Assembly (NCBI GenBank): GCA_003116975.1
Contig: BGKB01000047.1
Location: 1 to 64,000 of the forward strand
Direction: 5' to 3'
Length of the DNA: 64,000 nt
Origin: Aurantiochytrium sp. KH105
Taxonomy: Eukaryota; Sar; Bigyra; Thraustochytrida; Thraustochytriidae
Shown: positions 10,530 through 33,329 of the stretch, piece after piece
Position numbering within the stretch: position 1 is the first letter of the stretch
How the letters are laid out: every line of letters begins with the position of its first letter
Notes under the pieces: model-generated
What the model was told of the DNA's origin: nothing
The model's database searches: none
The model's input: only the letters and a program-made list of their open reading frames with translations
Made by a program: the position numbers and the translations under genes

Positions 10530-13500
10530 ATGAAGGCCGGTCAGCACGTTGCGGCCGCAGCGGCGCCGCTGCTGCTGCTGCTGCTGGCGGCGCTCAGCCA
10601 GGAAACCCGGGCGCAGCTGGACGCCTGCGGAGATGGCACCTCGCAGCTCCTGGCGCAGGCCAACACGAGGTGCTCGCTCATGAACGTCCCGTCGCCACTC
10701 CTCTCCACGGACACGTGCTGCGGCACCGCGTCGTCCGGCGGCTCACAAGGGTCCACCACCCTCGTCAACGAATGCAGAGATATCTACACCAACGCCGCGT
10801 ACTGCACATCGGACTGCGAGTCCCTGGACGAGAACGACGAGCTCGTCATCTACCTCGAAATGGAAAGCACCACCGCCGACGACACCTGCTGCCGCTCCTG
10901 CAAGTGCGTCGGCGACCCTGACTGCATGGCCTTCGACGGCACTCGCGCCTCTTGGGTGCTCTGTGATGGCCGCGCCAAGGGCTGCAAGATGAAGGAAAAG
11001 ATCTGTCTCAAACAGGTTGACCATCTTGGCAACGCTTGCCAGTGGCTCAAGGGCGACGACTCGTGGGAGAGCTTTGACCTTTCCGGAAGCCCGTGCCAGC
11101 CGGACTTTGCGCTCTCCGGATACCCGACCATGACCATGTACTCTAAGGGCGACTTCCTCGTCAACCTGACGCTCGGCGAGCGAGGCATCATTCGCGAGCT
11201 CACTGTTGCCGACGGCAGCGGCGAGACCTACGCCCTCGGGGCCGCGTCTTGCTTCCAGTACGACCCGCGCACGGTGTCGGGCTTCAACCAAATCTCCAAG
11301 GCATGGACCGCATCGTCCGGATCCATCCCCCGGACGTGGACCGTCAGCACGCCCAACGATGTCGAGATTCTCTGGCGTGTTGTCGATGACGATACGGGCA
11401 TTGTCATCGAGGCCGCATGCACGCAAGCGCCAGGATCCAGCACGCAGCGCATCGATGTGCAGCGCCTCTACGCCGTCTCCAGCTCGGACCTCAGCACGGA
11501 CGAGGAGACTGGCTTTTGCGTGTCGGGCACCATCGACCGTGGCCTGGCCAGCATCAAGTACTCTGGAACGGACGACTTTGCCTTTCAGCAAAAGTGCCTC
11601 GCCAAGAGCCTTCCCGAGCTCCTCAGCACCTGCAAGGCCATCATCGGTCTCGAGTGCACGCCGTACAGTCTCAACAGCTACATTCGGTACTGGTGTGAGA
11701 ATGCCGACATTGCCAACACCGATCTCGATGGCGACGTCGATGCCTGCTACCAAAACTTGGTCACTTCGGGCTCGAGCGAGGAACGCGCGTCCAAGTGGGT
11801 CATGTATCTGTGTCAACTGAACCACGTTGACGATGTCGAGTCCTGCATGACTCTCGTCTCGCAGTTCGGCTGGACCGAGTTCCTCAGCAAGTACTCGAAC
11901 GGCATCATCAGCAGCGAAGACACTGACGGCGGCACGGACAGCTGCGCAGCGGATGCTTCATCGTACACCACGCTCACTGGTGATGATGCACTTTGCGCGC
12001 TCGGTGTCTTTGTCGAGTACGAGGTCGACGACGGCGATTGGGAGCAAGCCTTTTTCATCCCCTCGACGCTGCCGCCCTGCCAAAGCACCCTGGTCGTCAA
12101 CGGCGCCGATCACCCGGAGCTCTTCTTGTACCCGATTCGCTTTCGCCAATGCTCGCTCGACGCCAGCTGCCTGCGCGAGACGGGCTGCGCGCCATCGGCC
12201 GGTTTTTCCGTCCAGCTCGAATTCTCCACGGACGAATGCGAGGCCGAGCTTGAGAGCAACGAGTGCTTTGATGCCCAGTGCGCCATGGACAGCGACCTGC
12301 TCACCAATCCGCAGGTGGTGTGCGGCGACACCCCTTCGTCACCCGCCGAAATCGGCGCGTGCGAGTCGTGCTGCGTCACCGACAGTCTCGTTAATGGGGA
12401 TACCATTGACGAACTCAGCTGCCGCGAACTGATTACGCAGATCCCATTCTGCGACGCGACCTCCGACCAAGAACTTTGCGACACGCTGCTGGAGGAAAGC
12501 TCGAACGCAATGCTTACGATGCAGATTGCCAAGAACACGACGAACATGGACTGCTGCCGCTCCTGTGCTGCCTGGGGCGACCCTCTTATCTCCTCCTTTT
12601 CCGGCGAGAAGAGCAAGTGGATCAACTGCGACGGCCGCAACAGCAAGTGCACCATTAAGGAGAGCGTTTGCTTGAGCCAGGTCGACCACGCCGGCAACCA
12701 GTGCGTGTACTCGCAAGAGGCAGCCGATCTCTTGCTCAAGCCCTCTGACATTGGCGCCTACGGCTCTCCCTGCCAATCGAACGTCACTCTTTCCGGCGAG
12801 GCTGTGCTCACCATGTACGCTATCGACGGCCTGAGCGTGAGCATCACCAACGGCGAACGTTCTGTGATTACTCGCCTTCATCTGCAAACCGAGCTCGACA
12901 CCTTTCATCTCGACGCGAGCGAATGCTTTGCGAACAACCCGAACGATGCCTGGTCCTCGGAAGGCGGCGCGAAGCTTTCTGCGAGCACGTTGGACGTCGT
13001 CTTCGCCGACGGTGACAGCGAGAACGAAAAGACGTGGACCATTGTCGATGCCAACACGAACGTCTTTATCCGCGCGCGCTGCATCCGCAAGGTGGCCACC
13101 GACGGCTACACGGGCGGCTACCGCATGAACATTGAGACACTCATTGACACCGAACCCGAGCGCACTGGCGGCAGTGGCTTTTGTGTCTCTGGCGCCATGG
13201 ACACGGGTCTCTCGACGATTAATAGTGCGGGCGAGATTTGCCAGGAGAACATCGAAAGTCTCGTTGACTTTTGCCAGGCCGTGGGCTCGAACACGTGCCA
13301 GAGCAAAGACGTGTCCAAGGTGGTCAAGGCCTGGTGCGACACGGCAGCGAACATTTTCCCACTGGACCCAAAGTCTTCGGACGCCTGCTTTGCGTACATC
13401 AAGCCGAGCCGCAGTAACTCGAACAAGGTCCTGCACGCCTGGCAAGAACTGTACTGCGAGGCCGTCTCTTCGTACAGGTCAACTGGCCAGTCGGTTGCAG

Positions 13501-13937
13501 CCTGGGTGGAGCAATGCGTTTCTCGATTGCAAAATGACGGATTTGACGCGGTTGTCGCCGAGTATGGAAAGGGCAGCATGACTTCGTCCGCTTCGGTCTA
13601 CTGCGCGCAGTCCGCGAGTGATTACGGCATGAAGGCTGACTCCGACCCGTGCATGCCGGGTGTCACGGTGGAGTACCGCAACGATGATGGCGACTGGACC
13701 GAACTCTTTTTCATCCCCGAGGATCTTCCGCCGTGCAACGGCGAGCTGCAAATCTCAGCCACGGAGTTTCCGGAGCTCTTCGTGCACCCCTTCCGCGTCT
13801 ACCAGTGCGAGTTGGACACCTCGACTTGCCCCGTGGACATGCACGAGGACATTTACTGCGCTGCCCGCCAGGGCTTTTCTGTCTCATACGTTTACTCGTA
13901 CGAGTCCTCCATTTGCACGACTGGATCTTCGCGCTAA
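10530..13937 (+). CDS. Secreted two-module cysteine-rich protein, paralogue 1
   Basis: 1,135 residues starting at the ATG that opens a clear signal peptide (basic start, Ala/Leu core, cleavage near TRAQ, residue ~27). The mature protein is two divergent copies of one module. Landmarks in module A are CCRSCKCVGDPDCMAFDG (GDP at residue ~128), CDGR, GSPCQ, NLTLGERG with an N-glycosylation sequon, GFC and PELFLYPIRFRQC. Module B repeats them as CCRSCAAWGDPLISSFSG (GDP at ~683), CDGR, YGSPCQSNVSL, NGERSVI, SGFC and PELFVHPFRVYQC. The GDPxxxxF start recalls von Willebrand D domains, but homology is unproven. There is no membrane anchor after the last cysteines, so it is probably secreted or a wall/matrix component. 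This copy is the most divergent of the four and lies 5.6 kb from the rest. Confidence 0.85.
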   Translation: MKAGQHVAAAAAPLLLLLLAALSQETRAQLDACGDGTSQLLAQANTRCSLMNVPSPLLSTDTCCGTASSGGSQGSTTLVNECRDIYTNAAYCTSDCESLDENDELVIYLEMESTTADDTCCRSCKCVGDPDCMAFDGTRASWVLCDGRAKGCKMKEKICLKQVDHLGNACQWLKGDDSWESFDLSGSPCQPDFALSGYPTMTMYSKGDFLVNLTLGERGIIRELTVADGSGETYALGAASCFQYDPRTVSGFNQISKAWTASSGSIPRTWTVSTPNDVEILWRVVDDDTGIVIEAACTQAPGSSTQRIDVQRLYAVSSSDLSTDEETGFCVSGTIDRGLASIKYSGTDDFAFQQKCLAKSLPELLSTCKAIIGLECTPYSLNSYIRYWCENADIANTDLDGDVDACYQNLVTSGSSEERASKWVMYLCQLNHVDDVESCMTLVSQFGWTEFLSKYSNGIISSEDTDGGTDSCAADASSYTTLTGDDALCALGVFVEYEVDDGDWEQAFFIPSTLPPCQSTLVVNGADHPELFLYPIRFRQCSLDASCLRETGCAPSAGFSVQLEFSTDECEAELESNECFDAQCAMDSDLLTNPQVVCGDTPSSPAEIGACESCCVTDSLVNGDTIDELSCRELITQIPFCDATSDQELCDTLLEESSNAMLTMQIAKNTTNMDCCRSCAAWGDPLISSFSGEKSKWINCDGRNSKCTIKESVCLSQVDHAGNQCVYSQEAADLLLKPSDIGAYGSPCQSNVTLSGEAVLTMYAIDGLSVSITNGERSVITRLHLQTELDTFHLDASECFANNPNDAWSSEGGAKLSASTLDVVFADGDSENEKTWTIVDANTNVFIRARCIRKVATDGYTGGYRMNIETLIDTEPERTGGSGFCVSGAMDTGLSTINSAGEICQENIESLVDFCQAVGSNTCQSKDVSKVVKAWCDTAANIFPLDPKSSDACFAYIKPSRSNSNKVLHAWQELYCEAVSSYRSTGQSVAAWVEQCVSRLQNDGFDAVVAEYGKGSMTSSASVYCAQSASDYGMKADSDPCMPGVTVEYRNDDGDWTELFFIPEDLPPCNGELQISATEFPELFVHPFRVYQCELDTSTCPVDMHEDIYCAARQGFSVSYVYSYESSICTTGSSR

Positions 13938-13967
13938 AAGAGAAATGACAGCAACGCGACTGTCTGT

Positions 13968-13988
13968 CAGACGCAATTGCTGCGTCTG
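13968..13988. terminator. Stem-loop just after paralogue 1
   Basis: CAGACGCA and TGCGTCTG form a perfect 8 bp stem with a 5-base loop, about 30 bases after the stop codon. It could be a 3'-UTR structure. Eukaryotic polymerase II does not use hairpin terminators, so the role is uncertain. Confidence 0.3.
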
Positions 13989-16383
13989 TCTGGCTGACCC
14001 CAAACATCTAGGTATAATACAAAATCATTATTCATCATCATCTACAGCATTCTGATGGCATGGGCGATCGATTCACACTCACTCGAGCATTTGTTTTGTG
14101 CGATCAATACAATCGCAAAATAAATCGAATTTTTCAGGTCTGCAATCAATGCAATCGTCAGCGTCCGGACTTCGAGATTCGCGATCCTTGTCGTTACTCG
14201 GACTTTTCGGGTCTAAATATTCATTGCAATCGCTCGGACTTTGGCGATTTTCGACCGTCGTATTCGCCTGGTCACACTCGGACTTTTTTCAAAAAGTTAA
14301 TGCTTCTGTGATGATTCTACCATCATGCCCACACTTGAGTAATTCGAGTCTGCGATTTTTCGAGATGAAAGAAGTCCTTGGAGAGCGAGTATTCAATTTG
14401 AGCGATCTGCATTGCGAACTCAAAGACTTTGCACAATCTGAATGACCTTAAGTATGTATAATTGACGCAGAAATAAAAAAAGGTGTGCGAGCTCGTCGAG
14501 TCTGAGCGTCCGTCTGCCCTCAACGGTGTGCCAATCGTTCTGAGGCTCGATCAATACCATCCGCGGTTGTGTGCGTGCGTGCTTGCGTGCTCAGATCAAG
14601 CTGAGGCCAGCTGCCAAAGATTCAGATCAAGACTAGCGCGCAGCTTGCGCTGAGATTGTTGGATTGGAGCTGAGAATCATTGCAACTTTTGTGCTGCAGC
14701 CACGAGACTCGCGCTAAGAAGCGCTCGAGCTCACCACAAAATATCGTAAGAATAAGCAAGCGCTCTCGCGAAGCGTGTCGACAGGATTAAGATGAGAGCC
14801 GCACAAGCTGTCGATGTGCTCAACAATCTTTCAAACGTATCAGCGAAGTCGAGTCTTCGCTGTGTTGTCAGGCTGAAAAGGATGAAGAGGTCGAAGACGC
14901 CTTTTATTAATTAACTGTAAAAGCCTACAACTTTGATTATCACCGCACAATATCAGTCAAGGACCACATTCGATCGAAATGATCAATTCTCGTTATTCGT
15001 TTCTTACATGTGGCGTTCCAGACCTTTATGGTGGCAACGCTTGGGCCATTGTGTGCTTGTGCCTATTATACTACACCACCTTTCTTCAAAGTATCCTACC
15101 AAGATTCCGTCTGCCCATCTATCTATCTGCCTGGCCTGTCTGCCTGCCTGTCACTCTAGTATACCAAACATTTGACAGCTCGTATCCTCCGAAGCGAAGG
15201 TGGTATCTTCAAGCGAAACAAGGCGCAGCGAGCCACCCACCAACCATCCGCTCAACCCAGTGCAGATGGCACGGTCGAGGGAAGCTCCGGCGCCCGTCTT
15301 CGTTCGCCCGTCCGTTGCGCTGCGTTGGGTCCCCCGACCGGACGCCGACGCAACGAGCACAGATAGAAAAGTCGATCGTAGAGAAGCCTCGTCTCGATCT
15401 CACCCGCCAATCAAGTCTCTTGGCGCACACGGGAAGCCAAGTCGCCACACTGGCGGAGGGGCCAGGGGACTCGCTTTCGCGGCAGGCCACCAGCCAATCA
15501 ACTTGTCCGAAGCAAGCAAGGCAACTGCAAACGTATCCAAAAGTTCAACTGTCGCACGCGCCCTCCATGACGGCGCGAGGCCGTGAGCTTCGCGGCTTGG
15601 GCGGCTTCGTCCAAGTCCGTTTCGTCGCGCCGTGCTGTGCTTTGCGCAATAACGCCTCGGTCAGGGTCGCACTGTGGCTCGGGGCGTCATGAGCGCGCAA
15701 AAAAGTCCCCGATCGCGGCAGCGTGCACGGCGAGACCGCCATCGACCCATCCAAACGGTCGCTGTCGGTGGATCGCAGCCGCCGCCATCGTCGTCTACAT
15801 CTCCAGGTCGACGGTCGAGTCGGTGCGGGTCGCCGCGGCGTTCCGGACCGCGCCTGGCGCGGCTTGGACGCGGCTTGGACGCGGCGTGCAGCGGCGCTGA
15901 AGCTGACTGTGAGTCCTATACACGCACGCAAGAAACTGCACGCATGGAATCGAATGAATGATACGGAATGGAAAAACCCGCCACCGCTGAGGCGCTGCAG
16001 CTGGGCTCCGGCGGAGAATCTTTTTCGATCGCCCATGGGCGAGCTGCAGGAGCTCGCTCGGGAGTGGGCGGCGGCGAACTTCGGGGCGCGGAGGACAGAA
16101 ATGGAGGGGTGGACTTCTTCTCCCACCTCGATTTCTTCTGCGACTCCACTCCGCGTCTTTGTAGCTTTTCCGAGTCCATGGAATTCAGGCTCCAGTCCCC
16201 CGTCTGGATCGGAGAGCTCGGCTCGAGGAGGACGGCGAGGATGACGAGGAGCGCGGCTTCCCGACGCAGGGCGACCCGCGACCGCTGGTGGTGGCAGTGG
16301 CTGCGTCGCGAGCGGTGAGCGAACGGTGCAGGCATGGCGCGGTATGGCGCGATGTGGCCATCGTTGATCACGCCGCGTCGAAC

Positions 16384-16452
16384 GCAAGGCAAGACAAGAC
16401 AAGGCAAGACAAGTCAAGGCAAGGCAAGGCAAGGCAAGGCAAGGCAAGGCAA
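16384..16452. repeat. (GGCAA)n pentanucleotide array
   Basis: About thirteen tandem copies of GGCAA with GACAA variants at the left end; the right end is more homogeneous, as expected of a recently expanded microsatellite. Confidence 0.85.
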
Positions 16453-18616: not shown

Positions 18617-18653
18617 ACTCGCCTCGCCTCGCCTCGCCTCGCCTCGCCTCGCC
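18617..18653. repeat. (GCCTC)n pentanucleotide array
   Basis: Seven perfect tandem copies of a GCCTC pentamer in noncoding GC-rich DNA. Confidence 0.85.
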
Positions 18654-19512
18654 CCCATCCCGCGGGTGCACAGGGAGGGACTCGGCGGACACAAGTAGGT
18701 AGCGAGCGCGGTGCCCCGTCACGGCGCCCTTCCCCAGCGAGCCAGCCAGCCAGTCATGGCAGTCCTTCGGCCGGCCTGCCTCGGCCGGTGCGGCGTCGAG
18801 ACCTTTCTTTCCCGCTTTCTTTCCTTCTTTTTCCTTCTTTCTTTCCTTCTTCGAGACCATTCCATCCCATTCCTTCCCGTCCCATCCTTCCCTGCGCGCT
18901 GTCTATCGACGTCCTCGCTCGCTGGCTCCGCTTCCCTTTGTTTCCTTTCCTTTGCGCTGCTTCGTTCGTTCGCCTCGACCCGAGCCCGCGTGCCCTGCGC
19001 CGCGCGCCTCAGTGGGGACATCTGGCATGCGTCAGAGGGCACGCCGCGGTCGCGTGCCAGAGGCGGCGAAGCCAAGATGGAGATCTCTCGCCTCAACTCG
19101 ACTCGACCCCCGACCCGACACCACCCGACCCGACACGACTCGCCTCGGTTCGTTCGCTCTACGACAGATTCCTGGATGGATGGGCGCCTGACTCGACCGC
19201 CTGCCAGACTGCTGAGCAAGGCTAGGCAGACGCGCGAACCTGGAGAGCGAGAAGGAGTCCGCGAGCCTGGAAGCAAAGCCCCTTCCGTACTTGCCTCCGC
19301 CGGCCTTCCATCCTTGCTTGCATTCTTCCCGAGCCGCCTCGCGCGCGCCTGCCAAGGGAGAGTGAGTACGTGAGTAAAAAAAAAGCGAGTGAGAGCCACG
19401 CGTGGGCTGGCTGACGTGCAGAAGCGCAGCACAGAGCCAAAACCGGAAAAGAAGATCATTCGCACATTCGCTCGGTCGATCGTCCCTTCGGTCGTTCGCC
19501 CCCAGCAGGCCA

Positions 19513-22500
19513 ATGGAGCCCAAAAGCGCGCGAGCGAGACGCGCGCCGGCTACGCTTGCGGCGGCGGCGGCGGCAGGAGTCGCCGTGCTGCTGCTCGCAA
19601 ACTCTGCCCAGGCCGTCGCGCCTGCGTGCGGGGCCGGAAGCTCCTCGTACATTTACCAAGCCAACACGAGATGCATTGACAATGGTTTGAACGGCGTAGA
19701 GTCCGCCACCGTCAGCCTCGATACCTGCTGTGGTACCGCCACCGACACTGGCATCGTCGCAGACGGGGACTCCCAGACCTGCCGAGATGTCACATCCTTG
19801 TACCCATACTGCGAAACTCCCGATGACTGCGACGTCAGTGATGCCGACATTCTCACCATCAGCCTCGACATTGCCACCGCAGAAGCCAGCGACACATGCT
19901 GCCGTTCCTGCAAGTGCGTCGGTGATCCCGACTGCGTCTCCTTTGACAACACGCCCGCGTCATGGGTCCTCTGCGACGGCCGTCGCAAGAGCAATTGCAA
20001 GCAGGGCCGCTCTCCGTGCCGTCGCCAGCGCGACCACATGGGCAATCGCTGCAAGTGGATCAAGAAGGACCCCGAATATCTTGGCTGGGATGTTGATGGC
20101 AGCCCTTGCCAGGTAAACTGGGAAAAGTCCGGCCACCCCACAATGCTCATGTACCAAACGGGCCTCTTCTCCGTCAACCTCACGCTCGGCGAGCGTGGTG
20201 TCATTGACAGTGTCCTCGTCACGACCGGTGAATCCGGTACAGATTACGTTCTCGACGCTGATGCCTGCTTCGAGCATGACCCGCGTCTCAACCCCAACGA
20301 CTACGCCGCCGCCGAAGAAGCGTGGACCTCGAGCTCAGGTGACGCCATTCCCGATACCTGGAGCGTAAGCACCCCAAACAGCGTCGAAATCATGTGGAAT
20401 GTCGTCGACGATGCCACGCAGTCCATTGTCGAGATCTACTGCACGCAGCCGCCGGGCACCAACCGCACGCGCCTCGACGTCAAGCGCCTCTACAGTCTGG
20501 TCAACGAGACTGATGCTAGCGATGAGGACGGCTTTTGCATCACCAACACCATTGATCGCGGCCTCGCCACCACAAAGTACGCCAACGCCGACGACGATTA
20601 CGAGTTCCAGCAAAAGTGTCTCGTGCAGACCCTTCCGGGGCTCCTTGCCACCTGCAAGATCATCATGGGCGCCGAATGCACGCCGTACAGCCTCGATGAC
20701 TACATCACCGAGTGGTGCCAGAACGCCGACATCACCAACACTGACCTTGATGGCGACGTCGACGAGTGCATCCGCATGCTTGTGAAAAAGGGATCTGAAA
20801 CTGTCCGCGGTGAGCGCTGGACGCGTTACATTTGCCAGCTCAACCGTGTCGACGACGTCGACGAGTGCATGGCTCTCGTCTCTCAGTTCGGCTGGGCCCA
20901 GTTCCTCATGGACAACTCCGACGGTCTCGTCGACTCTGGCAACGAGCTTTCCAGCTGCGCCTCCAGCGTCACTGACTACTCTACGCTCGAGGGTGAGAAC
21001 GCAACGTGTGCCTTTGGCATCTTCGTCGAGTACCTTCCCAGCGGAGAGGCCACGGATGCTGACGCGGAGTGGGTACAGGCCTTCTTCATTCCCGCCGACC
21101 TTGTCCCGTGCAACAACGAGCTTGTCATTGACGGTACACAGTACCCTGAGCTCTTTGCCTACCCTTTTCGCTTTCGCCAATGCACTCTCGACTCGAGCTG
21201 CCTTGCCGACTCGGCTTGCGCTCCCACTCTTGGCTTCGATGCCTCCGTCACCTTTGAATCGACCTGCGAAGACCTCCTGCGCAGTGACGACGAATGCTTC
21301 AGCACGCAATGCCCCATGAACGCGGACGTCGTTTCGAGCCCACAGGCCGTGTGCGAGGATGCTCCTTCGGCCCCGCTCGAGATCGGATCCTGCGACTCGT
21401 GCTGCGTCACCGGCGCGATCCTTGAATCTGACAGCGGTGACGACGACCTCGATGCCGGTACCACAGGTGAGGTCGTTGACTCAGAGACGTGCCGTCAGCT
21501 GATCATTCAGTCACCCTACTGCGACACGACCACGCAGTCGGACATTTGCGATAGTCTCACCGCTGAAGATGGCGAAGCTGTCCTCACTCTCGAGTTCACC
21601 ATGAACACCACGGAAATGAGCTGCTGCCGTTCTTGTGCCGCCTGGGGCGATCCGCTCATCTCCAGCTTTTACGGCGAGACCAGCAAGTGGATCAACTGCG
21701 ATGGCCGCAACAGCCGCTGCAGCGTCAAAGAGGATGTCTGCGAGAGCCAACTCGACCATGCTGGCAATGCTTGCGTCTACAACGCCACGATTGCCGACCT
21801 GATCGAAATTGGTTCCGACATTGGCGCCTACGGCTCGCCTTGCCAGTCGAACGTGTCCCTCTCCGGTGAAGCCGTTCTCACCATGTACGAGACCGAAGGT
21901 TTTCGTGTTACAATTACCAACGGCGAGCGTAGTGTCATTACACATGCCACCATTGAACTAACCAATGACGTCTACGAGCTCGACCCATCGCAGTGCTTCA
22001 ACGACGATCCGTACGACGCGTGGACTCTGTCAGACGGCTCGGACCCCACTCAAGGCACTCTTGACCTGACCTTTAGCGACACCGACCGCGACAACGAAAA
22101 GCAGTGGACCATTCGTGACTCCGACACCGGCATTTTCATGAAGATTGTCTGCCTGCGCCGCGTCTCCCAGGCCGGCTACGTCGGTGGCTACCGTATGAAC
22201 ATTGAGTCCCTCATCGATACAGTCGCCAACCGCACCACGTCCAGTGGATTTTGCGAGACTGGTACCATCGACTACGGACTCGCCACCATCAACAGCAACG
22301 GTGAGATCTGCCAGGAGAACATCGAGGACCTTGTCGAATTCTGCCGCGCCGTGGCCGAGCCTTCGTGCATGAAGGAGCAGGTTGCCGACCTTGTGGAGGA
22401 TTGGTGCGACACTGCCAATGTCTATGTCAGCTACGACAACCACGCCAAAAAGTGCGTCAACGCCATCAAACCCAGCCGTTCAAACTCGAACAAGGTCCTC

Positions 22501-22992
22501 GCAGACTGGCAGGCCGTCTACTGCGATGCCGTGAGCTCGCTCCGTGATGCCTCGCAGTCCGAGGAGACTTGGCAGGCCTTCTGTGTCTCGCGTCTGCAGA
22601 ACGAGGGTTTCGCCGCCGTGGTGGCCGAGCTTGGAGACGGTCGTCTTACGTCTTCATCACAGAGCGAGTACTGCGCTAGCTCCGCCACCGAGTACGGACT
22701 CAAGTCTGATAGCGATGGTTGCATGCCTGGCGTCACCGTAGAGTACCAGACCACCGAGGGCAACTGGACCGAGCTCTTCTTCGTGCCGCAAAACCTGCCT
22801 CCTTGCGGCGATACCCTCGAGATCTCCGCCACAGACTTCCCCGAACTCTTTGTGCATCCCATTCGCTTTGTTCAATGCGAGCTGGATACCACGGCCTGCC
22901 CCGTGGCCTCTCACACCGACTCTTATTGCGCAGCTGCGCAAGGGTACACGATCTCGTACATGTTTACCCAAGCTGACAGCGTTTGCAGTTAA
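19513..22992 (+). CDS. Secreted two-module cysteine-rich protein, paralogue 2
   Basis: 1,159 residues from the ATG at 19513. Upstream the frame is open from 19402 but without a better start, and this Met opens a signal peptide (Arg-rich start, Ala/Val/Leu core, cleavage near NSAQA). Module A begins with paired CxxC/CC motifs and GDPDCVSFD (GDP at residue ~137); module B repeats at ~712 with GDPLISSFYG, a spacing of ~575 residues. Module A carries a basic, cysteine-bounded segment, CKQGRSPCRRQRDHMGNRC. Matching N-glycosylation sequons occur in both modules (NLTLGERG; NVSLSGEA). An acidic Asp/Ser linker separates the modules. It ends shortly after its last Cys with no anchor. It is closest to paralogue 3. 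Function is unknown; an extracellular, disulfide-rich role is inferred from the signal peptide and cysteines. Confidence 0.88.
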   Translation: MEPKSARARRAPATLAAAAAAGVAVLLLANSAQAVAPACGAGSSSYIYQANTRCIDNGLNGVESATVSLDTCCGTATDTGIVADGDSQTCRDVTSLYPYCETPDDCDVSDADILTISLDIATAEASDTCCRSCKCVGDPDCVSFDNTPASWVLCDGRRKSNCKQGRSPCRRQRDHMGNRCKWIKKDPEYLGWDVDGSPCQVNWEKSGHPTMLMYQTGLFSVNLTLGERGVIDSVLVTTGESGTDYVLDADACFEHDPRLNPNDYAAAEEAWTSSSGDAIPDTWSVSTPNSVEIMWNVVDDATQSIVEIYCTQPPGTNRTRLDVKRLYSLVNETDASDEDGFCITNTIDRGLATTKYANADDDYEFQQKCLVQTLPGLLATCKIIMGAECTPYSLDDYITEWCQNADITNTDLDGDVDECIRMLVKKGSETVRGERWTRYICQLNRVDDVDECMALVSQFGWAQFLMDNSDGLVDSGNELSSCASSVTDYSTLEGENATCAFGIFVEYLPSGEATDADAEWVQAFFIPADLVPCNNELVIDGTQYPELFAYPFRFRQCTLDSSCLADSACAPTLGFDASVTFESTCEDLLRSDDECFSTQCPMNADVVSSPQAVCEDAPSAPLEIGSCDSCCVTGAILESDSGDDDLDAGTTGEVVDSETCRQLIIQSPYCDTTTQSDICDSLTAEDGEAVLTLEFTMNTTEMSCCRSCAAWGDPLISSFYGETSKWINCDGRNSRCSVKEDVCESQLDHAGNACVYNATIADLIEIGSDIGAYGSPCQSNVSLSGEAVLTMYETEGFRVTITNGERSVITHATIELTNDVYELDPSQCFNDDPYDAWTLSDGSDPTQGTLDLTFSDTDRDNEKQWTIRDSDTGIFMKIVCLRRVSQAGYVGGYRMNIESLIDTVANRTTSSGFCETGTIDYGLATINSNGEICQENIEDLVEFCRAVAEPSCMKEQVADLVEDWCDTANVYVSYDNHAKKCVNAIKPSRSNSNKVLADWQAVYCDAVSSLRDASQSEETWQAFCVSRLQNEGFAAVVAELGDGRLTSSSQSEYCASSATEYGLKSDSDGCMPGVTVEYQTTEGNWTELFFVPQNLPPCGDTLEISATDFPELFVHPIRFVQCELDTTACPVASHTDSYCAAAQGYTISYMFTQADSVCS

Positions 22993-24896: not shown

Positions 24897-27800
24897 ATGA
24901 GCACGACGCAGAGCACGCGCCGCACGGCAGCGGCCGCCGTCATGGTCGCAGTAGTGGCCGTACTGGCCAGCACCACAGAGTCAATGGCGCCCTCGTGCGG
25001 GGCCGGAGGCAACTCGTACATCTACCAGTCGAACACGCGCTGCGTGTCGAATGACGGTGTCACAAGTCTGGAGTCGCCGAGCGCGTCTTACTCGACCTGC
25101 TGCGGCGTCGATACTGATAGCGGCATCGTTTCGGCCGACGACGCCCAGACCTGCCGCGGCGTCACCTCCGTGTACCCATACTGCGAAAGCCCGGATGACT
25201 GCGATGTCGATGAGGATGATACCCTCATCATCAGTCTTGCCGTCGATACCGCAGATGCCAGCGACACATGCTGCCGTTCCTGCAAGTGCGTCGGTGATCC
25301 CGATTGCGTCTCCTTTGACAGCACACCCGCGTCCTGGGTTCTCTGCGATGGCCGCCGCCAAAACAACTGCAAGCAGGGTCGCTCTCCATGCCGTCGCCAG
25401 CGCGACCACATGGGCAACCGCTGCCAGTGGGTCAAGAAGGACCCCGAATACCTTGGCTGGGATATCGATGGCAGCCCCTGCCAGGTTGACTGGGAAAAGT
25501 CTGGCCACCCCACCATGCTCATGTACCAAACGGGCCTCTTCTCCGTCAACCTCACGCTAGGTGAGCGCGGCGTCATCGACAGTGTCCTCATCACGACCGG
25601 CGATGCGGGTGACAACTATATTCTCGATTCCGATGCCTGTTTCGAGCACGACCCGCGCCTCAACCCCAACGACTACGCCGCCGCCGAAGAAGCATGGACT
25701 TCGGAGTCTGGCAACGCCGTCCCTGATACCTGGAGCGTCAGCACCCCAAACAGCGTCGAAATCATGTGGAAGGTCGTCGACGACGCCACGCAGTCCATCG
25801 TCGAGATCTACTGCACACAGCCGCCAGGCACCAGCCGCACGCGCCTCGACATCAAGCGCCTCTACAGCCTTGTCAACGAGACCGATGCCAGCGACGAGGA
25901 CGGCTTTTGCGTCACCAACACCATCGACCGCGGTCTCGCCACTACGAAATTCAAGAACGCTGACGATGACTACGAGTTCCAGCAAAAGTGCCTTGTGCAA
26001 ACCCTTCCCGGAACTCTCGCGACCTGCAAGATCATCATGGGTGCCGAATGCACGCCGTACAGCCTCGATGACTACATCACCGAGTGGTGCCAAAACGCTG
26101 ATATCACCAACACCGACCTCGCTGGCGACGTCGACGAGTGCATCCGCATGCTTGTGAAAAAGGGCACCGAAGCTGAGCGCAGCGAGCGCTGGACGCGATA
26201 CATTTGCCAGCTCAACCGCGTCGACGATGTCGATGAGTGCATGGCTCTCGTCTCTCAGTTCGGCTGGGCCCAATTCCTCATGGACAACTCCGACGGTCTC
26301 GTCGACTCTGGCAATGATTCCTCCAGCTGCGCTTCGAGCGTCGCTGCCTACTCCAAGCTCGAGGGCGACAACGCGACGTGTGCCTTTGGCATTTTTGTCG
26401 AGTACCTTCCCAGCGGAGACGCCACTGACGAGGACGCGGTTTGGGAGCAGGCCTTCTTCATTCCCGCCGACCTTGTGCCGTGCAACAACGAGCTCGCCGT
26501 GAGCGGTTCAGAATACGCGGAGCTCTTTGCCTACCCGATTCGCTTTCGCCAGTGCTCCCTCGACGCGAGCTGCCTTGCCGACTCGGCGTGCGCCCCCACC
26601 CTTGGCTTTGACGTGTCCATCAACTTTTCCACTGACGACTGCCCGCCCACCACTTCCGATGATGGCAACCTTTGCTTTGACGCGGAGTGCCCCATGAACT
26701 CGGACGTTGTCTCGAACCCGCAGTCGGTGTGCGAGACCGTCCCGAACGCCCCCCTCGAACTTGGCTCCTGCGAGTCTTGCTGCGTCGCCGATTCTATTCT
26801 TAGCTCCGATGACAGCTCTGATGACAGTGAGGACGAGCAAACGTGCCGCCAGCTTACGATCCAGGCGCCGTACTGTGACACCAACCAAGAATCGATGCAA
26901 GACATCTGCGACAAGCTCGTTTCCGAGGAAGGCCAGGGTGTGCTTACTGTCGACTTTACCATGGATACGACCGAAATGAACTGCTGCCGCTCCTGCGCTG
27001 CCTGGGGTGACCCGCTCATCTCGAACTTTTACGGCGAGACCAGCAAGTGGATCAACTGCGACGGCCGCAACAGCCGCTGCAATGTCAAGGAAAACGTCTG
27101 CACCGAGCAGCTTGACCACGCCGGTAACGCTTGCGTCTACAACCCCGACATTGCAGCCTTAATCGAGACAGGATCCGACATTGGCGCCTACGGCTCGCCT
27201 TGCCAGTCGAACGTGTCACTCTCGGGCGAGGCCATTCTCACAATGTACGAGACCGACGGTTTCCGTGTCAACATTACCAACGGCGAGCGCAGCGTCATTA
27301 CCCATGCGACCATCGAGACTGTTGCGAGCGAGATTTACGCGTTGGACGCCTCGCAGTGCTTTAACGATGACCCGTACGATGCATGGACTCTGGCGAGCGG
27401 TGAAGACGCGCAATCGGGCTCTCTGGCTCTTGCATTCACCGACACCGACCGCGAGCACGAGAAGAAATGGACTGTGCGGGACACCGCGAGCGGCATTTTC
27501 ATGAAGATCGTCTGCCTGCGCCGCGTCTCCAAGTCTGGCTACATCGGCGGCTACCGCATGAACATCGAGACTCTCATTGACACAGTCACGGATCGTGTCT
27601 CGTCGAGCGGCTTTTGCGAGTCGGGCACGATCGACTACGGTCTTGCCACTATCAACAGCAACGGCGAGGTCTGCCAGGAGAACATCGAGGACATTGTTGC
27701 GTTTTGCCGTGCCGTCGCATCGCCTTCGTGCATGAAGGAGCAAATCGTCGAGCTCGTCAACGACTGGTGCGACACCGCTAATGTCTTCTCCAGCTACACG

Positions 27801-28364
27801 AACCATGCTAAAAAGTGCGTCAAGGCGATTAAACCAGGCCGCTCCAACAAGAACAAGGTCCTCGCCGACTGGCAGGCCGTTTACTGCGATGCCGTCAACT
27901 CGCTCCGCGACCCGTCGCAGTCCGAGGAGACCTGGCAAGCACTGTGCGTCTCGCGTCTGCAGAACGAGGGCTTCGCCTCGGTCGTCGCTGATCTCGGAGA
28001 CGGTCGCCTCACCTCTTCCTCGCAGAGCTCGTACTGTGCCAGCTCCGCCACGGAATACTCGCTCAAGTCGGAGAGCGATGGCTGCATGCCGGGTGTCAGT
28101 GTCGAGTACCGGAACTCGGACGGCGACTGGGTGGAGGCCTTCTTCGTTCCCCAGAACCTCCCTCCTTGCGGCGACAGCCTCGAAATTCTCGCCACAGACT
28201 ACCCCGAGCTCTTCCTGCATCCCATTCGTTTCCTCCAGTGCGAGCTCGACTCCACGGCCTGCCCCGTGGCCTCGCACGAGGATTCTTATTGCGCAGCTGC
28301 TCAGGGCTACACGATCTCGTACATGTTTTCCCAGGCGGGCAGCGTCTGCAACGACGACGTCTAA
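24897..28364 (+). CDS. Secreted two-module cysteine-rich protein, paralogue 3
   Basis: 1,155 residues. The ATG opens a signal peptide with an Ala/Val core (cleavage around residue 29, before APSCGAG). Module A has GDPDCVSFD at residue ~133 with the basic patch CKQGRSPCRRQRDHMGNRC; module B has GDPLISNFYG at ~704. Both modules share the order CC-C motifs, GDP, CDGR, GSPCQ, NGER/LGERG, DGFC or SGFC, and a closing PELF-(A/L)-(Y/H)PIRF-x-QC block. Sequons are conserved. The protein is nearly collinear with paralogue 2 and differs mainly in the linker between modules, which is Asp/Ser-rich (SSDDSSDDSEDE). It ends SVCNDDV without a membrane anchor. The family is not recognised; a secreted surface or matrix role is inferred. 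Confidence 0.88.
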   Translation: MSTTQSTRRTAAAAVMVAVVAVLASTTESMAPSCGAGGNSYIYQSNTRCVSNDGVTSLESPSASYSTCCGVDTDSGIVSADDAQTCRGVTSVYPYCESPDDCDVDEDDTLIISLAVDTADASDTCCRSCKCVGDPDCVSFDSTPASWVLCDGRRQNNCKQGRSPCRRQRDHMGNRCQWVKKDPEYLGWDIDGSPCQVDWEKSGHPTMLMYQTGLFSVNLTLGERGVIDSVLITTGDAGDNYILDSDACFEHDPRLNPNDYAAAEEAWTSESGNAVPDTWSVSTPNSVEIMWKVVDDATQSIVEIYCTQPPGTSRTRLDIKRLYSLVNETDASDEDGFCVTNTIDRGLATTKFKNADDDYEFQQKCLVQTLPGTLATCKIIMGAECTPYSLDDYITEWCQNADITNTDLAGDVDECIRMLVKKGTEAERSERWTRYICQLNRVDDVDECMALVSQFGWAQFLMDNSDGLVDSGNDSSSCASSVAAYSKLEGDNATCAFGIFVEYLPSGDATDEDAVWEQAFFIPADLVPCNNELAVSGSEYAELFAYPIRFRQCSLDASCLADSACAPTLGFDVSINFSTDDCPPTTSDDGNLCFDAECPMNSDVVSNPQSVCETVPNAPLELGSCESCCVADSILSSDDSSDDSEDEQTCRQLTIQAPYCDTNQESMQDICDKLVSEEGQGVLTVDFTMDTTEMNCCRSCAAWGDPLISNFYGETSKWINCDGRNSRCNVKENVCTEQLDHAGNACVYNPDIAALIETGSDIGAYGSPCQSNVSLSGEAILTMYETDGFRVNITNGERSVITHATIETVASEIYALDASQCFNDDPYDAWTLASGEDAQSGSLALAFTDTDREHEKKWTVRDTASGIFMKIVCLRRVSKSGYIGGYRMNIETLIDTVTDRVSSSGFCESGTIDYGLATINSNGEVCQENIEDIVAFCRAVASPSCMKEQIVELVNDWCDTANVFSSYTNHAKKCVKAIKPGRSNKNKVLADWQAVYCDAVNSLRDPSQSEETWQALCVSRLQNEGFASVVADLGDGRLTSSSQSSYCASSATEYSLKSESDGCMPGVSVEYRNSDGDWVEAFFVPQNLPPCGDSLEILATDYPELFLHPIRFLQCELDSTACPVASHEDSYCAAAQGYTISYMFSQAGSVCNDDV

Positions 28365-29870
28365 AGCCCAAGCCGTTCCCTGAATCTCTGTTTTGACTGA
28401 CTTTTGAATGCCTGAATTGGCTGCGAAGCCACCACCTAGGCCTACTACATTTTCGCTTTATTTTCTCACGCATGAATCATTTTCATTTCTTCACAACTCA
28501 TTATACTAAGACGAAGGTGACTGACTGTTGCTTTCGCTGCTTCATGGCTCGTTCTTTTCCCTCTTGGCGTGCGTCAAGCTGCGAGCCGGTCTCCAGCCTT
28601 GGTCCAGTCATGGGACCGATATCGCCCTTCGATCTTCGCCACCCCTTTCTACCTCCGCTGCCTTGCTCTCACTGCCCTCCCCCGCCACGAAGCCCTCGTC
28701 GCTGACGACGCCGCTGCCGTCCGCCGCCCGACAAACGTGGCTCCCCTCTCCCTTTTCCTTCCTCTCTTTCCCTCTCTTCCCGCGATCTTTCTCGGCCTTA
28801 TACACCCCTTAAACCCTACCGCAAAGTGTGCACTCTCCCTTTTTCTCCCTTTCCTTCCTTCTCCCCTTTCCTCCCGCCCGGTTCACGCGCTCGCGAATCG
28901 GCTCTCTCGCCTTCGCCGCGGCTCATCGGCGGCCGCGCGCGGGTCCCTCGCCGGCCCTTCCCTTCCCTTCCCTTCCCTCCCTCCCTCCCTGCGCCCCTGC
29001 CGAGCGTCCCTCCGAGTCCCGCGCGGCCGCCGTCACGGGGCGCCATCGCCACTGCGGACGCGCGGAAGCCAGAAGAGGAAGGCCCTCGCGCTTTGATTGT
29101 ATCCCGCTGTGGGGGCTCCGACTCGGCCGCTGCCCTTCTCCCTTCTCCCTCTCTAGTCTCCGCTCTGCTCGGCGCCGCTCGCTGCTCTGCTCTGCTCTGC
29201 TCTGCCTGCGCAAGCGTGACCGACTGCAAGCGCGCGCGCGCAGCCTGGCTGCTCCTCTGCACGCACGCCCGCAGCGCTTCTCTGCACGCTCGCCCGCTCG
29301 CCCGCCCGCCTGCCTTCGGGACGCTCGCCGGGCCCGCGCGGGCACGCACGCGGTGGCATCGCAACCAGCGCCGCGCCGTGCCGAGCCGCGTCTTGCGAAG
29401 CCTCTCCTCCTCTCCGAACACGCGGACGGAGGCAAGAGGGCTGTGCACGCGCACGCGCTGCGCGTCCGTCCGGCCGGCCGCAGCTGCAGCTGGCTGGCTG
29501 GCTGGCTGCAATCAATTAATCGATCGATCGATTGGTCAGTCAAGTGGAGCGAAGGCGTGGCTGGTGACCTCTCCACTACCACTCCTCGTGCACCTTTTGC
29601 CATCAATCAAGTATACATTCATTCCTCGTCTGTATGTATGTATACAAAGGCAGAGTCGCCCGCCTGCCCCTGCTTTTCGCAGGCAGCAAACCCGAAAGAA
29701 AAGCGCGTGCGCGCTCGCTCGCCCTCGACAGCTTCGGCGTCCGCCCGTCCGTCCGTACGTACGTACGCCCGTCTGCTCCGCGCGGGGGCTCTCGCCGCCG
29801 CATCCAAGGGACCGCCCCGCGCGCGGGGAGCTCGTAGCTGGCACGTGCACGGCGAGAAGGTCGCGACGCG
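28365..29870. other. 1.5 kb spacer between paralogues 3 and 4
   Basis: No gene supported. The 3' region of paralogue 3 is AT-richer to ~28540. A pyrimidine-rich stretch (CCTTCC/CTCTTT) spans ~28600-29000, followed by a CTCTG pentamer repeat (29185-29205) and GC-rich DNA up to the next start. A CGCTGTGGGGG word at ~29107 resembles half of the CCAC-N-GTGG motif. CGTA/GTAC words cluster at 29755-29765. Confidence 0.45.
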
Positions 29871-32800
29871 ATGCGCGCCTTCGCGGCCGGCCCCGTGCTG
29901 CTCGCGACGCTCCTCGTGGCAGGGCAAATCGGTGCGGGAGATGCCCAAGCCTCGACCTGCAATTTAGGCGTCAACACCATCTATGCCGTGCAACAACGCT
30001 GCTCTACAGATTCCGGCTTTTCCGGCAGCGTCTCGTACAATACGTGCTGTGGCCTCTGGGATAGCGACTTTGTGTTCTATGAAGATGATAGGGGCGTCTG
30101 CACGTATTTCCAGAATGCATATGGTTACTGCACCAGCGTTGAGGACTGCGATGTTGACGAGGGCGACGTTCTCACCATCAGCCTCACGTTCTCGACCACT
30201 TCGGAGAGCGACACGTGCTGCCGTACCTGTAAATGCGTCGGTGACCCCGATTGTGTCTCCTTCAACAACACCCCAGCGTCATGGGTTCTCTGCGACGGCC
30301 GTCGCAAGGGCGATTGCAAGCAGGGGCGCTCTCCGTGCCGCAAGCAACGCGACCACATGGGCAACCGCTGTCAATGGCTCAAAAACGACCCCGACTACCT
30401 CGGCTGGGAGGCTAGCGGCAGTCCGTGCCAGGTCGACTGGGAGAAGTCGGGCCACCCGACCATGCTCATGTACGAGTCGGGCCTCTTCTCCGTCACCCTC
30501 ACGCTCGGCGAGCGCGGCGTTATCGACAGCCTTTCGGTGACCACTGGCGACACTGGCGACAGCTTCGAGCTCGACGCTGATGCCTGCTTTGAGCATGACC
30601 CCCGGCTCACCCCCGATGATACGTCCGCTGCCAGCGAGGCTTGGACTTCCGCATCGGGCAGCGCAATCCCTGACGCGTGGACCGTTAGCACCCCCAACAG
30701 CGTCGAAATCATGTGGAAGGTCGTGGATGATACCACAGGCACGAACATGCACATCTACTGCACGCAGCCCCCCGACTCTGAACGGACGCGACTCGATGTC
30801 AAGCACCTCTTCACGCTCACCGACGAGTCTGAAGCAGAAGACGAAGACGGCTTTTGCGTGACTAGTACCATCGACCGCGGTCTTGCCACGACAAAGTACG
30901 AGGATGCCACGGACGACTATGAGTTCCAGCAAAAGTGTCTTGTTCAGACCCTCCCTGACCTCCTCGCTACCTGCAAGATCATCATGGGGGCCGACTGCAC
31001 CCCTTATAATCTCGACACCTACGTTACCGAGTGGTGCCTTGCCGCCGATATTACCTATACCGATCTTGCTGGTGACAGAGACGAGTGCATTAGCATGCTC
31101 GTCACCACCGGCTCCGAGAGCGACCGCGGCGAACGTTGGACTCGATACTTGTGCCAGCTCAACCTCGTCGATGACGTTAACGAATGCATGGCGCTTGTGT
31201 CCCAGTTCGGTTGGGCGCAGTTCCTCGTGAGCAACTCCAACGGCCTTGATCAATCGGAGGACAGCCTTACCGCAAGCTGCGCTTCGAGCGTAACTGCATA
31301 CTCGAAGCGCGAGGGTGATAGTGCGGTTTGCGCCTACGGCGTCTTTATCGATTACCTCGTGAGCGGTACCGTCGATGAGGATGACGCCGTGTGGGAGCAG
31401 GCTTTCTTTATTCCGTACAGTCTGCCGCCCTGCAATGGCCAGCTCCTCATTGACGGCACCCAATACTCTGAGCTCTTTGCTTACCCTATTCGCATGTCTC
31501 GGTGCTCTCAAAGCATTGATTGCGTTGCAGATCTGGAATGCGCTCCGATTCCTGGTTTCTCGGTGTCCTTCGACTTTAGCACAGAGAACTGCACGGTGGA
31601 CGGTGAAGTATATTCTTCAGATGTGTACGTGGAGGAAGATTGTTTCGCCTCGGAATGCGAAGCGAATGAGGACGTGACCTCGAATCCGCAAACCGTTTGC
31701 GAAGCCGTCCCAGACAGCCCGCTCGAGCTCGGCACTTGCGAGTCGTGCTGTGTCGCCGAGACACTCCTTGGAGTTGACGGCTCTGACAGCTCGGACACAC
31801 CACGATGCCGCGAGGTGTACACCCAAGAAGCGTACTGCAATACTCTCGACGAATCCTTGACCGAAACCTGTGCGAGGCTCATTTCCGAGGAAGGCGAAGG
31901 TGTCCTCACTGTGGAGCTCAGCATGGACTCCTCCGAGTTGGATTGCTGCCGCACATGCGCCGCCTGGGGTGACCCGCTCATTTCCAGCTTTTCTGGCGAA
32001 ACTTCCAAGTGGATCAACTGCGATGGCCGGAACAGCAACTGCAAAGTGAAAAAGAACGTCTGCAAGAAGCAGCGTGACCAAGCTGGCAACAAGTGCGTCT
32101 ACAATGCCACGATTGCCGAACTGATCGAGATTGGCTCCGACATTGGCGCCTATGGCTCGCCTTGTCAATCCGATGTGTCTCTGTCGGGCGAGGCCATTCT
32201 CACCATGTACGAGACCGAAGGTTTCCGTATCAACATCACCAACGGCGAGCGCAGTGTCATCACCCACGCGACCATCGAGACTTTGACCGACGTGTTCACC
32301 TTTGACTCGTCGCTGTGCTTCAATGAGGATCCCTATGAAGCGTGGACTTCGGCGAGCGGCGACGACGTTACGGACGGCCCCCTCGCTCTTATGTTCGCCG
32401 ATACGGACCGGGAGCACGAGAAAAAGTGGACGGTACGCGACTCCGAGAGCGGCATCTTCATGAAGATCGTCTGTCTGCGCCGCGTGTCCCAAGCTGGCTA
32501 CGTCGGAGGCTATCGCATGAACATTGAATCTCTCATCGACACAATCACCAACCGCACCACATCCAGCGGATTCTGCGAGACCGGTACAATCGACTACGGC
32601 CTTGCCACCATCAACAAGAATGGCGATGTGTGCCAGCAAAACATCGAGGGCATTGTTCAGTTCTGCAGCGCCGTCGCATCGCCTTCGTGCCAGCAAAGTC
32701 AAGTCACTGAGAACATCAAGAACTGGTGCGACACCGCCAATGTCTTTGTTCAGTACGTCGACCATGCCAAGAAATGCGTCAAGGCCATTGACCCCTCACG

Positions 32801-33329
32801 ATCGAACGACAACAAGGTTTTGGCCGACTGGCAGGCTGTCTACTGCGACGCGGTGAACTCGCTTCGTGACCCGTCGCAGACTGAGGATACCTGGCGCGCG
32901 CTTTGCGTATCTCGCCTGCAGAATGAGGGTTTTGCCTCGGTTGTCGCTGATCTCGGCGATGGTCGTCTCACGTCTTCTTCCCAGAGTGCGTACTGCGCTG
33001 CCAATGCCACCGTGTACACGCTCAAGTCAGACAATGATGGCTGCATGCCAGGTGTCAGCGTGGAATACCGGAATGTGACGGAAAGTAACGCGTGGACAGA
33101 AGTCTTTTTCATCCCGCAGAGTCTCCCGCCCTGCGGCGACAGGCTCGAGATTCTTGCCACGGACTTTCCGGAGCTCTTCCTCAACCAGATTCGATTCCGC
33201 CAATGCGAGCTCAACACGACCGCTTGCCCTGTAGAGACGCACACGGATTCGTACTGCGCAGCTGCCCAAGGATACACTGTCTCGTACATGTATTCGCAAT
33301 CCAACAGCGTCTGCGACAATGATGCCTGA
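29871..33329 (+). CDS. Secreted two-module cysteine-rich protein, paralogue 4
   Basis: 1,152 residues. The ATG opens a signal peptide (MRAF start, Leu/Ala core, cleavage near GDAQA). Module A has GDPDCVSFN at residue ~124 and the basic patch CKQGRSPCRKQRDHMGNRC. Module B has GDPLISSFSG at ~700 and, uniquely, a basic version of the equivalent patch there too (CKVKKNVCKKQRDQAGNKC). The N-terminal ~80 residues before the first CCRTC motif are more divergent than in paralogues 2 and 3. Sequons occur in both modules (NITNGERS; NATIAE). It ends SVCDNDA with no anchor. It is last in the tandem array; the next gene is on the opposite strand. Family unknown. Confidence 0.88.
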   Translation: MRAFAAGPVLLATLLVAGQIGAGDAQASTCNLGVNTIYAVQQRCSTDSGFSGSVSYNTCCGLWDSDFVFYEDDRGVCTYFQNAYGYCTSVEDCDVDEGDVLTISLTFSTTSESDTCCRTCKCVGDPDCVSFNNTPASWVLCDGRRKGDCKQGRSPCRKQRDHMGNRCQWLKNDPDYLGWEASGSPCQVDWEKSGHPTMLMYESGLFSVTLTLGERGVIDSLSVTTGDTGDSFELDADACFEHDPRLTPDDTSAASEAWTSASGSAIPDAWTVSTPNSVEIMWKVVDDTTGTNMHIYCTQPPDSERTRLDVKHLFTLTDESEAEDEDGFCVTSTIDRGLATTKYEDATDDYEFQQKCLVQTLPDLLATCKIIMGADCTPYNLDTYVTEWCLAADITYTDLAGDRDECISMLVTTGSESDRGERWTRYLCQLNLVDDVNECMALVSQFGWAQFLVSNSNGLDQSEDSLTASCASSVTAYSKREGDSAVCAYGVFIDYLVSGTVDEDDAVWEQAFFIPYSLPPCNGQLLIDGTQYSELFAYPIRMSRCSQSIDCVADLECAPIPGFSVSFDFSTENCTVDGEVYSSDVYVEEDCFASECEANEDVTSNPQTVCEAVPDSPLELGTCESCCVAETLLGVDGSDSSDTPRCREVYTQEAYCNTLDESLTETCARLISEEGEGVLTVELSMDSSELDCCRTCAAWGDPLISSFSGETSKWINCDGRNSNCKVKKNVCKKQRDQAGNKCVYNATIAELIEIGSDIGAYGSPCQSDVSLSGEAILTMYETEGFRINITNGERSVITHATIETLTDVFTFDSSLCFNEDPYEAWTSASGDDVTDGPLALMFADTDREHEKKWTVRDSESGIFMKIVCLRRVSQAGYVGGYRMNIESLIDTITNRTTSSGFCETGTIDYGLATINKNGDVCQQNIEGIVQFCSAVASPSCQQSQVTENIKNWCDTANVFVQYVDHAKKCVKAIDPSRSNDNKVLADWQAVYCDAVNSLRDPSQTEDTWRALCVSRLQNEGFASVVADLGDGRLTSSSQSAYCAANATVYTLKSDNDGCMPGVSVEYRNVTESNAWTEVFFIPQSLPPCGDRLEILATDFPELFLNQIRFRQCELNTTACPVETHTDSYCAAAQGYTVSYMYSQSNSVCDNDA

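What the first reader, a model, noticed from the sequence alone, without database searches (positions are those of the whole stretch)
10530..33329. Tandem array of four secreted, two-module cysteine-rich proteins of an unrecognised family
Four collinear plus-strand genes of 1,135-1,159 residues fill 23 kb with no other supported gene between them. Each has its own signal peptide, the same ordered landmarks (CC-C motifs, GDP, CDGR, GSPCQ, GERG/GERS, GFC, PELF...QC) and no membrane anchor. Local amplification of a large secreted family suggests a surface coat, wall, scale, adhesive or ectoplasmic-net component under selection for dosage or diversity. The function is inference; the array and motifs are seen directly.
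Basis: partly seen in the sequence, partly recalled or inferred. Interest (0 to 1): 0.85.

Follow-up and report, generated by a model that had tools for sequence, protein, structure and literature searches.

The report
Secreted cysteine-armoured two-module protein family
Four neighbouring genes in what looks like a marine thraustochytrid protist encode large secreted proteins rich in disulfide-forming cysteines; they belong to a family without a name in the libraries searched that probably helps build or coat the outside of the cell.

Summary
Four intron-free plus-strand genes (1,135, 1,159, 1,155 and 1,152 aa) lie at 10,530-33,329; each has a hydrophobic N-terminus, two homologous modules of about 555 aa and no membrane span. 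The homologous contig carries the same four in order. No credible Pfam, NCBIfam or PDB-sequence match was found.

The family is larger: at least 23 loci after collapsing alleles. Twenty are two-module genes in four arrays; one joins a module to a TPEP linker and a VWA domain; two end in a membrane span. The 69 modules aligned share 39 invariant columns, 22 of them cysteine. Modules 1 and 2 separate once on the tree, 99/94 support. Alleles and paralogues show purifying selection, and codon bias suggests high expression. One pair shows gene conversion of the coding body that spares the flanks and first ~100 codons.

I infer an abundant extracellular building block (wall, scale or ectoplasmic-net coat); function is untested. 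The likeness to von Willebrand D domains is a 17-19-residue motif, not shown homology. Structure prediction never ran (35 refusals, queue full).

The parts
10530..13937 (+). gene 1, 1135 aa, signal-like N-terminus plus two modules; 68 Cys
   Evidence: open frame; hydropathy; 51-55% identical to the other three
10614..12263 (+). gene 1, module 1
   Evidence: module boundaries transferred through the family alignment
12279..13934 (+). gene 1, module 2
19513..22992 (+). gene 2, 1159 aa, two modules; 68 Cys
   Evidence: ATG at 19513 chosen for the hydrophobic N-terminus, upstream in-frame codons back to 19402 are open
19615..21294 (+). gene 2, module 1
21310..22989 (+). gene 2, module 2
24897..28364 (+). 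gene 3, 1155 aa, two modules; 68 Cys
24984..26672 (+). gene 3, module 1
26688..28361 (+). gene 3, module 2
29871..33329 (+). gene 4, 1152 aa, two modules; 68 Cys
29946..31640 (+). gene 4, module 1
31656..33326 (+). gene 4, module 2

Best explanation
The array encodes abundant secreted building blocks of the cell's extracellular coat. Shown from sequence: each protein enters as a signal-like N-terminus plus two copies of one ~555-residue, strongly acidic, cysteine-rich module; soluble two-module members dominate, and two relatives carry one module on a single membrane span and one carries it beside a VWA domain. Inferred: the proteins fold and form their disulfides in the ER/Golgi, are exported in bulk, and assemble through module-module or module-polysaccharide contacts into a resistant wall, scale or ectoplasmic-net coat; the membrane-spanning relatives tether that coat and the VWA relative gives metal-dependent adhesion. 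The conserved core would do the assembly, and the variable segment before the first GDP motif would set what each paralogue contacts. Gene conversion would keep the assembling cores alike while promoters and N-termini stay private.
For: N-terminal hydrophobic stretch and no later span in the window proteins. 55 cysteine columns filled in 33 of 33 two-module proteins; exactly 68 Cys in 24 of 33; several cysteine columns are gained or lost in exact pairs across 69 modules (residues 348/356, 102/108, and the set 67/73/97/536), as disulfide partners would be. pI 4.05-4.29 in 7 proteins. Module joined to TPEP linker and VWA domain (E 2.5e-8, above Pfam's cut-off) and to a C-terminal membrane span in two proteins. 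Codon adaptation of family genes 0.52-0.81 (34 sequences) against 0.42-0.55 for 7 window neighbours and 0.58-0.74 for the four CCT genes that supplied the reference. Purifying selection.
Against: No expression, proteomic, localisation or structural data exist here. Seven invariant charged residues (D105, D122, R124, D141, E194, R195, R287 in module numbering) could mark a catalytic or binding site rather than a scaffold. Codon bias rides with GC3 (0.62-0.86 in the family, 0.59-0.66 in the neighbours), its reference set is only four genes, and the weakest family members overlap the neighbours. The paired cysteine losses follow clades, so they are few independent events. No signal-peptide predictor was run.
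Confidence: 0.5

Rival explanations
1. Adhesins or lectins of the ectoplasmic net: the proteins are secreted to bind food particles, bacteria or surfaces, with paralogues of different specificity, rather than to build a coat.
For: A relative carries a VWA domain. The most variable mature segment is N-terminal in module 1 (least conserved in 39 of 47 within-array pairs), as expected of a recognition face. The settling cells of thraustochytrids attach by the ectoplasmic net, and an extracellular adhesin-like candidate is listed for it (PMC12221091, abstract and its section on candidate proteins read).
Against: dN/dS is low between alleles and paralogues; no known carbohydrate-binding or adhesin domain matches the module. 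I could not compare with the candidate protein of PMC12221091.
Confidence: 0.22
2. Recognition family (mating, kin or virus/parasite recognition): gene conversion shuffles paralogues while N-terminal segments diversify.
For: Divergent first ~100 codons against a homogenised body in L025/L029 (43% against 85-100% third-position identity) and a similar trend in L041/L042.
Against: Alleles differ little: dN 0.004-0.032 in 13 pairs. The third codon positions of that segment are also diverged, so the contrast reflects spared conversion at least as much as positive selection. In L023/L026 the diverged half is the 3' half instead.
Confidence: 0.1
3. Secreted enzymes of an unrecognised fold that use the invariant charged residues of the GDP/CDGR/GER region.
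For: Seven invariant charged residues among modules that share as little as 25-30% identity with the reference module.
Against: Invariance is dominated by cysteine, glycine and proline (22 Cys of 39 invariant columns); GDP and its neighbours could be structural; no enzyme family matches.
Confidence: 0.1
4. The module is a highly diverged von Willebrand type D domain, so the family is a protist relative of the VWF/mucin/IgGFc-binding-protein scaffold.
For: C-x3-GDP-x4-FDG aligns with the opening motif of VWD: local hhalign scores 24.9, 36.5 and 32.4 for three module profiles against a best of 20.6 in 20 column shuffles of the module-2 profile; a companion VWA domain and TPEP linkers recall VWF and mucin architecture.
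Against: Probability only 3-44% and only 17-19 aligned columns. In global mode module 2 reaches 37% (E 5.9e-5 for one comparison) but the alignment is poor and module 1 gives nothing (E 0.83). No C8 domain signal (12-17 against a shuffle maximum of 15.8). None of 66 modules matches Pfam VWD at E 1.
Confidence: 0.2

Closest known systems
VWF / gel-forming mucin / IgGFc-binding protein D assemblies (VWD, Pfam PF00094)
   Same: large secreted, repeated, disulfide-rich modules with a C-x3-GDP-x4-FDG motif; a VWA domain and Pro/Thr-rich linkers occur elsewhere in the family
   Different: no Pfam VWD match; no C8 domain; similarity ends after 17-19 residues; the histidine of GDPHY and the CGLCGNFNG motif of VWD are absent from the aligned stretch
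VWA-domain extracellular proteins (Pfam PF00092)
   Same: the single-module relative on C87/C30 carries a VWA domain (E 2.5e-8)
   Different: the window proteins and the other members read here have no VWA match
Thraustochytrid wall scales and ectoplasmic net
   Same: extracellular, Golgi-derived structures of the presumed host group (passages of PMC11642839)
   Different: the passages describe sulfated polysaccharides; no scale or net protein sequence was available to compare

Membership tests
VWD domain family | profile match over the domain at Pfam's cut-off | tested here: not met
   no VWD match at E 1 in 66 modules
VWD domain family | opening motif C-x-x-x-GDP-x4-FDG | tested here: met
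   hhalign against 11 VWD sequences taken from PDB entries; GDP invariant in 69 of 69 modules, but FDG varies (only F invariant)
VWD domain family | similarity over the whole ~150-residue domain | tested here: inconclusive
   global hhalign: module 2 E 5.9e-5, all modules 5.5e-4, module 1 0.83, against 0.018 as best of 10 shuffles
VWD domain family | VWD fold and calcium site | not testable with these tools
VWF/mucin D assembly | C8 domain after VWD | tested here: not met
   hhalign scores 16.6, 11.8, 12.4 against a shuffle maximum of 15.8
Secreted extracellular matrix or wall protein | signal peptide and no retention or anchor | tested here: met
   hydropathy only; no SignalP
Secreted extracellular matrix or wall protein | found in wall, scale or ectoplasmic-net preparations | not testable with these tools
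   no proteome of this organism is held
Single cysteine-rich module family (this family) | 39 invariant columns including 22 Cys | tested here: met
   69 of 69 modules aligned, both haplotypes counted

The most novel reading that the evidence does not exclude
The module is an undescribed extracellular domain that founds the matrix of labyrinthulomycete protists: soluble two-module bricks in arrays homogenised by gene conversion, tethered by membrane-spanning relatives and linked to adhesion by a VWA relative, an independently elaborated counterpart of the VWF/mucin scaffold and a molecular handle on the wall, scales or ectoplasmic net.
Probability: 0.3. Interest if true: 0.72.

Novelty: new variant of a known kind. 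Interest (0 to 1): 0.52.

Why it matters
Proteins that build the wall, scales and ectoplasmic net of thraustochytrids are largely unknown; the one proteomic screen read here offers 18 untested candidates (PMC12221091). A family of at least 23 loci with a shared module in soluble, VWA-linked and membrane-spanning forms gives a concrete set of genes to tag and delete in a transformable group of marine protists. Private N-termini and promoters beside bodies homogenised by conversion also make it a usable case of concerted evolution.

Tried and rejected
Rejected: a known Pfam or NCBIfam family (the weak Collar, Flavi_NS1, ToxB_N and other matches lie below their cut-offs and cover short stretches). 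Rejected: a solved relative by sequence (one hit E 2.8, none). Rejected: close relatives in viral contigs (no pattern match) or in GTDB genomes (6 pattern matches, none a relative); both scans reach close relatives only, so they do not show that the module is absent there. Rejected: a VWD-C8 unit. Set aside: PF00094 in the whole genome found nothing, but that search rang in none of 14 control genomes, so it says little. Rejected: a further copy or relic between the window genes. No shared 10-mer was found in at least three of the four 400-base upstream stretches.

Literature: eight searches showed no description of such a family; the library holds open-licence papers only. Read: PMC12221091 abstract and its candidate-protein section; PMC11642839 passages; PMC6050695 and PMC5924542 abstract and outline; PMC5854782 listing only.

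Not done: 18S identification (RF01960 unanswered); structure prediction and fold search.

Full report
What is in the window. Four plus-strand open frames lie at 10530-13937, 19513-22992, 24897-28364 and 29871-33329, giving 1135, 1159, 1155 and 1152 residues. They are 51-79% identical to one another. Each has a hydrophobic N-terminus, no later hydrophobic window above 1.46 on the Kyte-Doolittle scale, and two homologous modules of 550-565 residues. A search of the masked window with seven family proteins found no other copy (3 hits, E 0.53-0.99).

Source. The window is G000:C47:1-64000 of an unnamed 76.0 Mb genome in 367 contigs. Chaperonin genes read mostly as single open frames and mostly come in near-identical pairs, so two haplotypes appear to be assembled. 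The genome holds pieces matching the omega-3 PfaA model (best 930 bits, below the curated cut-off of 1010), with a second ketosynthase frame on the opposite strand 4.9 kb away. From recalled knowledge of thraustochytrid PUFA synthases, intron-poor genes and genome size, I take it for a thraustochytrid. This was not confirmed by 18S, since that search did not complete.

Extent of the family. A tblastn of gene 3 gave 46 matches in the genome, and the module of the C87 protein gave 73; both outputs score only the best candidates, so counts are lower bounds. With alleles collapsed I count 23 loci: array A (C47/C33, 4 genes, this window), array B (C224, and C110 with C53, 8 genes; the joining of C110 and C53 is inferred, and C224 ends in the start of a further gene), array C (C11/C18, 3), array D (C42/C146, 5), one gene on C87/C30, one on C53/C179 and one on C21/C68. 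Array A has the same four genes in order on both contigs.

Anatomy. In 33 two-module proteins (both haplotypes, incomplete for some arrays) 55 cysteine columns are filled in 33 of 33. The cysteine total is exactly 68 in 24 of 33, 69 in two and 64-65 in the seven of array D. In 69 aligned modules 39 columns are invariant: 22 Cys, plus G104 D105 P106 F111, D122 R124, D141, G144, G163 S164, E194 R195, W238, R287, G307, G469 and P494. Cysteine columns that vary tend to vary together: residues 348/356, 102/108, and the set 67/73/97/536 agree in 69 of 69 modules. That is what disulfide partners would do, although the changes follow clades and so are few events. Seven proteins tested have pI 4.05-4.29.

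Other architectures. The C87 protein (953 aa) has one module, a TPEP-rich linker and a VWA domain (Pfam E 2.5e-8, 34.8 bits against a cut-off of 23.8). Two array C proteins have Pro/Thr-rich linkers between modules. The C53 single gene (1425 aa) and the C21 gene (1623 aa) have one module, further cysteine-rich or Pro/Thr-rich stretches, and a C-terminal hydrophobic span (scores 2.55 and 2.93) followed by a short tail; Pfam recognises nothing in the parts searched.

Evolution. A tree of 43 modules from one haplotype separates module 1 (with the single-module proteins) from module 2 by one branch, support 99/94 and 97% of 200 bootstrap trees; each array forms its own clade, and the VWA protein groups with array C module 1. 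The root is not known, and the single-module proteins sit on long branches. So the two-module form arose before the arrays, and each array grew locally. dN/dS is 0.05-0.24 in 13 allele pairs and 0.17-0.44 in 9 paralogue pairs; in the window array dS is 0.74-1.19 in the four pairs computed, so these copies are old.

Gene conversion. L025 and L029 of array B share 43% of third codon positions in the first 100 codons but 85-100% in the ten following 100-codon windows, and blastn finds nothing alike in 1.4 kb on either side, while the allele pair L009/L010 used as control aligns at 91% over 1.4 kb upstream and in two pieces downstream. A recent tandem duplication should carry flanks. Three other paralogue pairs with full flanks also show none (L024/L026, L023/L026, L009/L011). 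L041/L042 show a similar body-against-N-terminus contrast, but their available flanks are too short to judge. L023/L026 show the reverse: the 5' half is alike and the 3' half diverged. Conversion is therefore the best reading for L025/L029; a duplication whose ends coincide with the gene is not excluded. Across arrays the segment before the first GDP motif is the least conserved of eight mature regions in 39 of 47 within-array pairs.

Expression proxy. With four CCT genes as reference, codon adaptation is 0.52-0.81 in 34 family sequences (0.63-0.72 for the four window genes), 0.58-0.74 for the CCT genes themselves (circular) and 0.42-0.55 for seven window neighbours. With a slightly different reading of the same reference, a PUFA synthase piece scores 0.81 and three VWA-bearing frames 0.61-0.68. 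GC3 moves with it, so this is a hint of high expression, not proof.

What it is not known to be. No Pfam, NCBIfam or PDB-sequence match is credible. The C-x3-GDP-x4-FDG motif made me test von Willebrand D. Against 11 VWD sequences taken from PDB entries (baited with a consensus recalled from memory), module profiles score above shuffles (24.9, 36.5, 32.4 against at most 20.6 in 20 shuffles of one of them) but over 17-19 columns and with 3-44% probability; global alignment favours module 2 and the pooled profile but not module 1. C8, which follows VWD in VWF and mucins, is not supported. I therefore do not file the module under VWD.

How it probably works. The proteins most likely are secreted building blocks of the outer coat (confidence 0.5): shown are the secretory N-terminus by hydropathy, the repeated cysteine-rich module, the extracellular partner domains, the purifying selection; inferred are bulk export, assembly, and the tethering and adhesive roles of the membrane-spanning and VWA relatives. 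Rivals are adhesin or lectin of the ectoplasmic net (0.22), recognition family (0.1) and unknown enzyme (0.1).

Noticed in passing
window 43949-52894 (-): 2981-aa frame with bromodomains, RAMA, FYRN and WSD above Pfam cut-offs and a weak MBD match below it: an unusual combination of chromatin and modified-DNA reader domains.
   Followed up: no
window 55123-58098 (+): 991-aa frame matching the Cas1p 10-TM acyltransferase (E 3.4e-82), a family known for O-acetylating extracellular polysaccharides (recalled).
   Followed up: no
G000 contigs C1/C26 and C24/C112: Clusters of VWA-bearing open frames a few kb apart on allelic-looking contigs; 100 VWA matches in the genome, so other extracellular arrays exist.
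   Followed up: no
L025/L029 and L041/L042: Paralogues with near-identical bodies but diverged N-terminal segments; for L025/L029 also unrelated flanks, as expected of gene conversion.
   Followed up: partly
G000:C72:305786-314912: Omega-3 PfaA-like synthase piece with a divergently oriented ketosynthase frame 4.9 kb away; the first frame ends at 1253 aa near the start of the acyl-carrier region.
   Followed up: no
L053/L054 (G000:C21): Several cysteine-rich repeats of about 130 aa after the module, with no Pfam match, in a protein with a C-terminal membrane span and an acidic tail.
   Followed up: no
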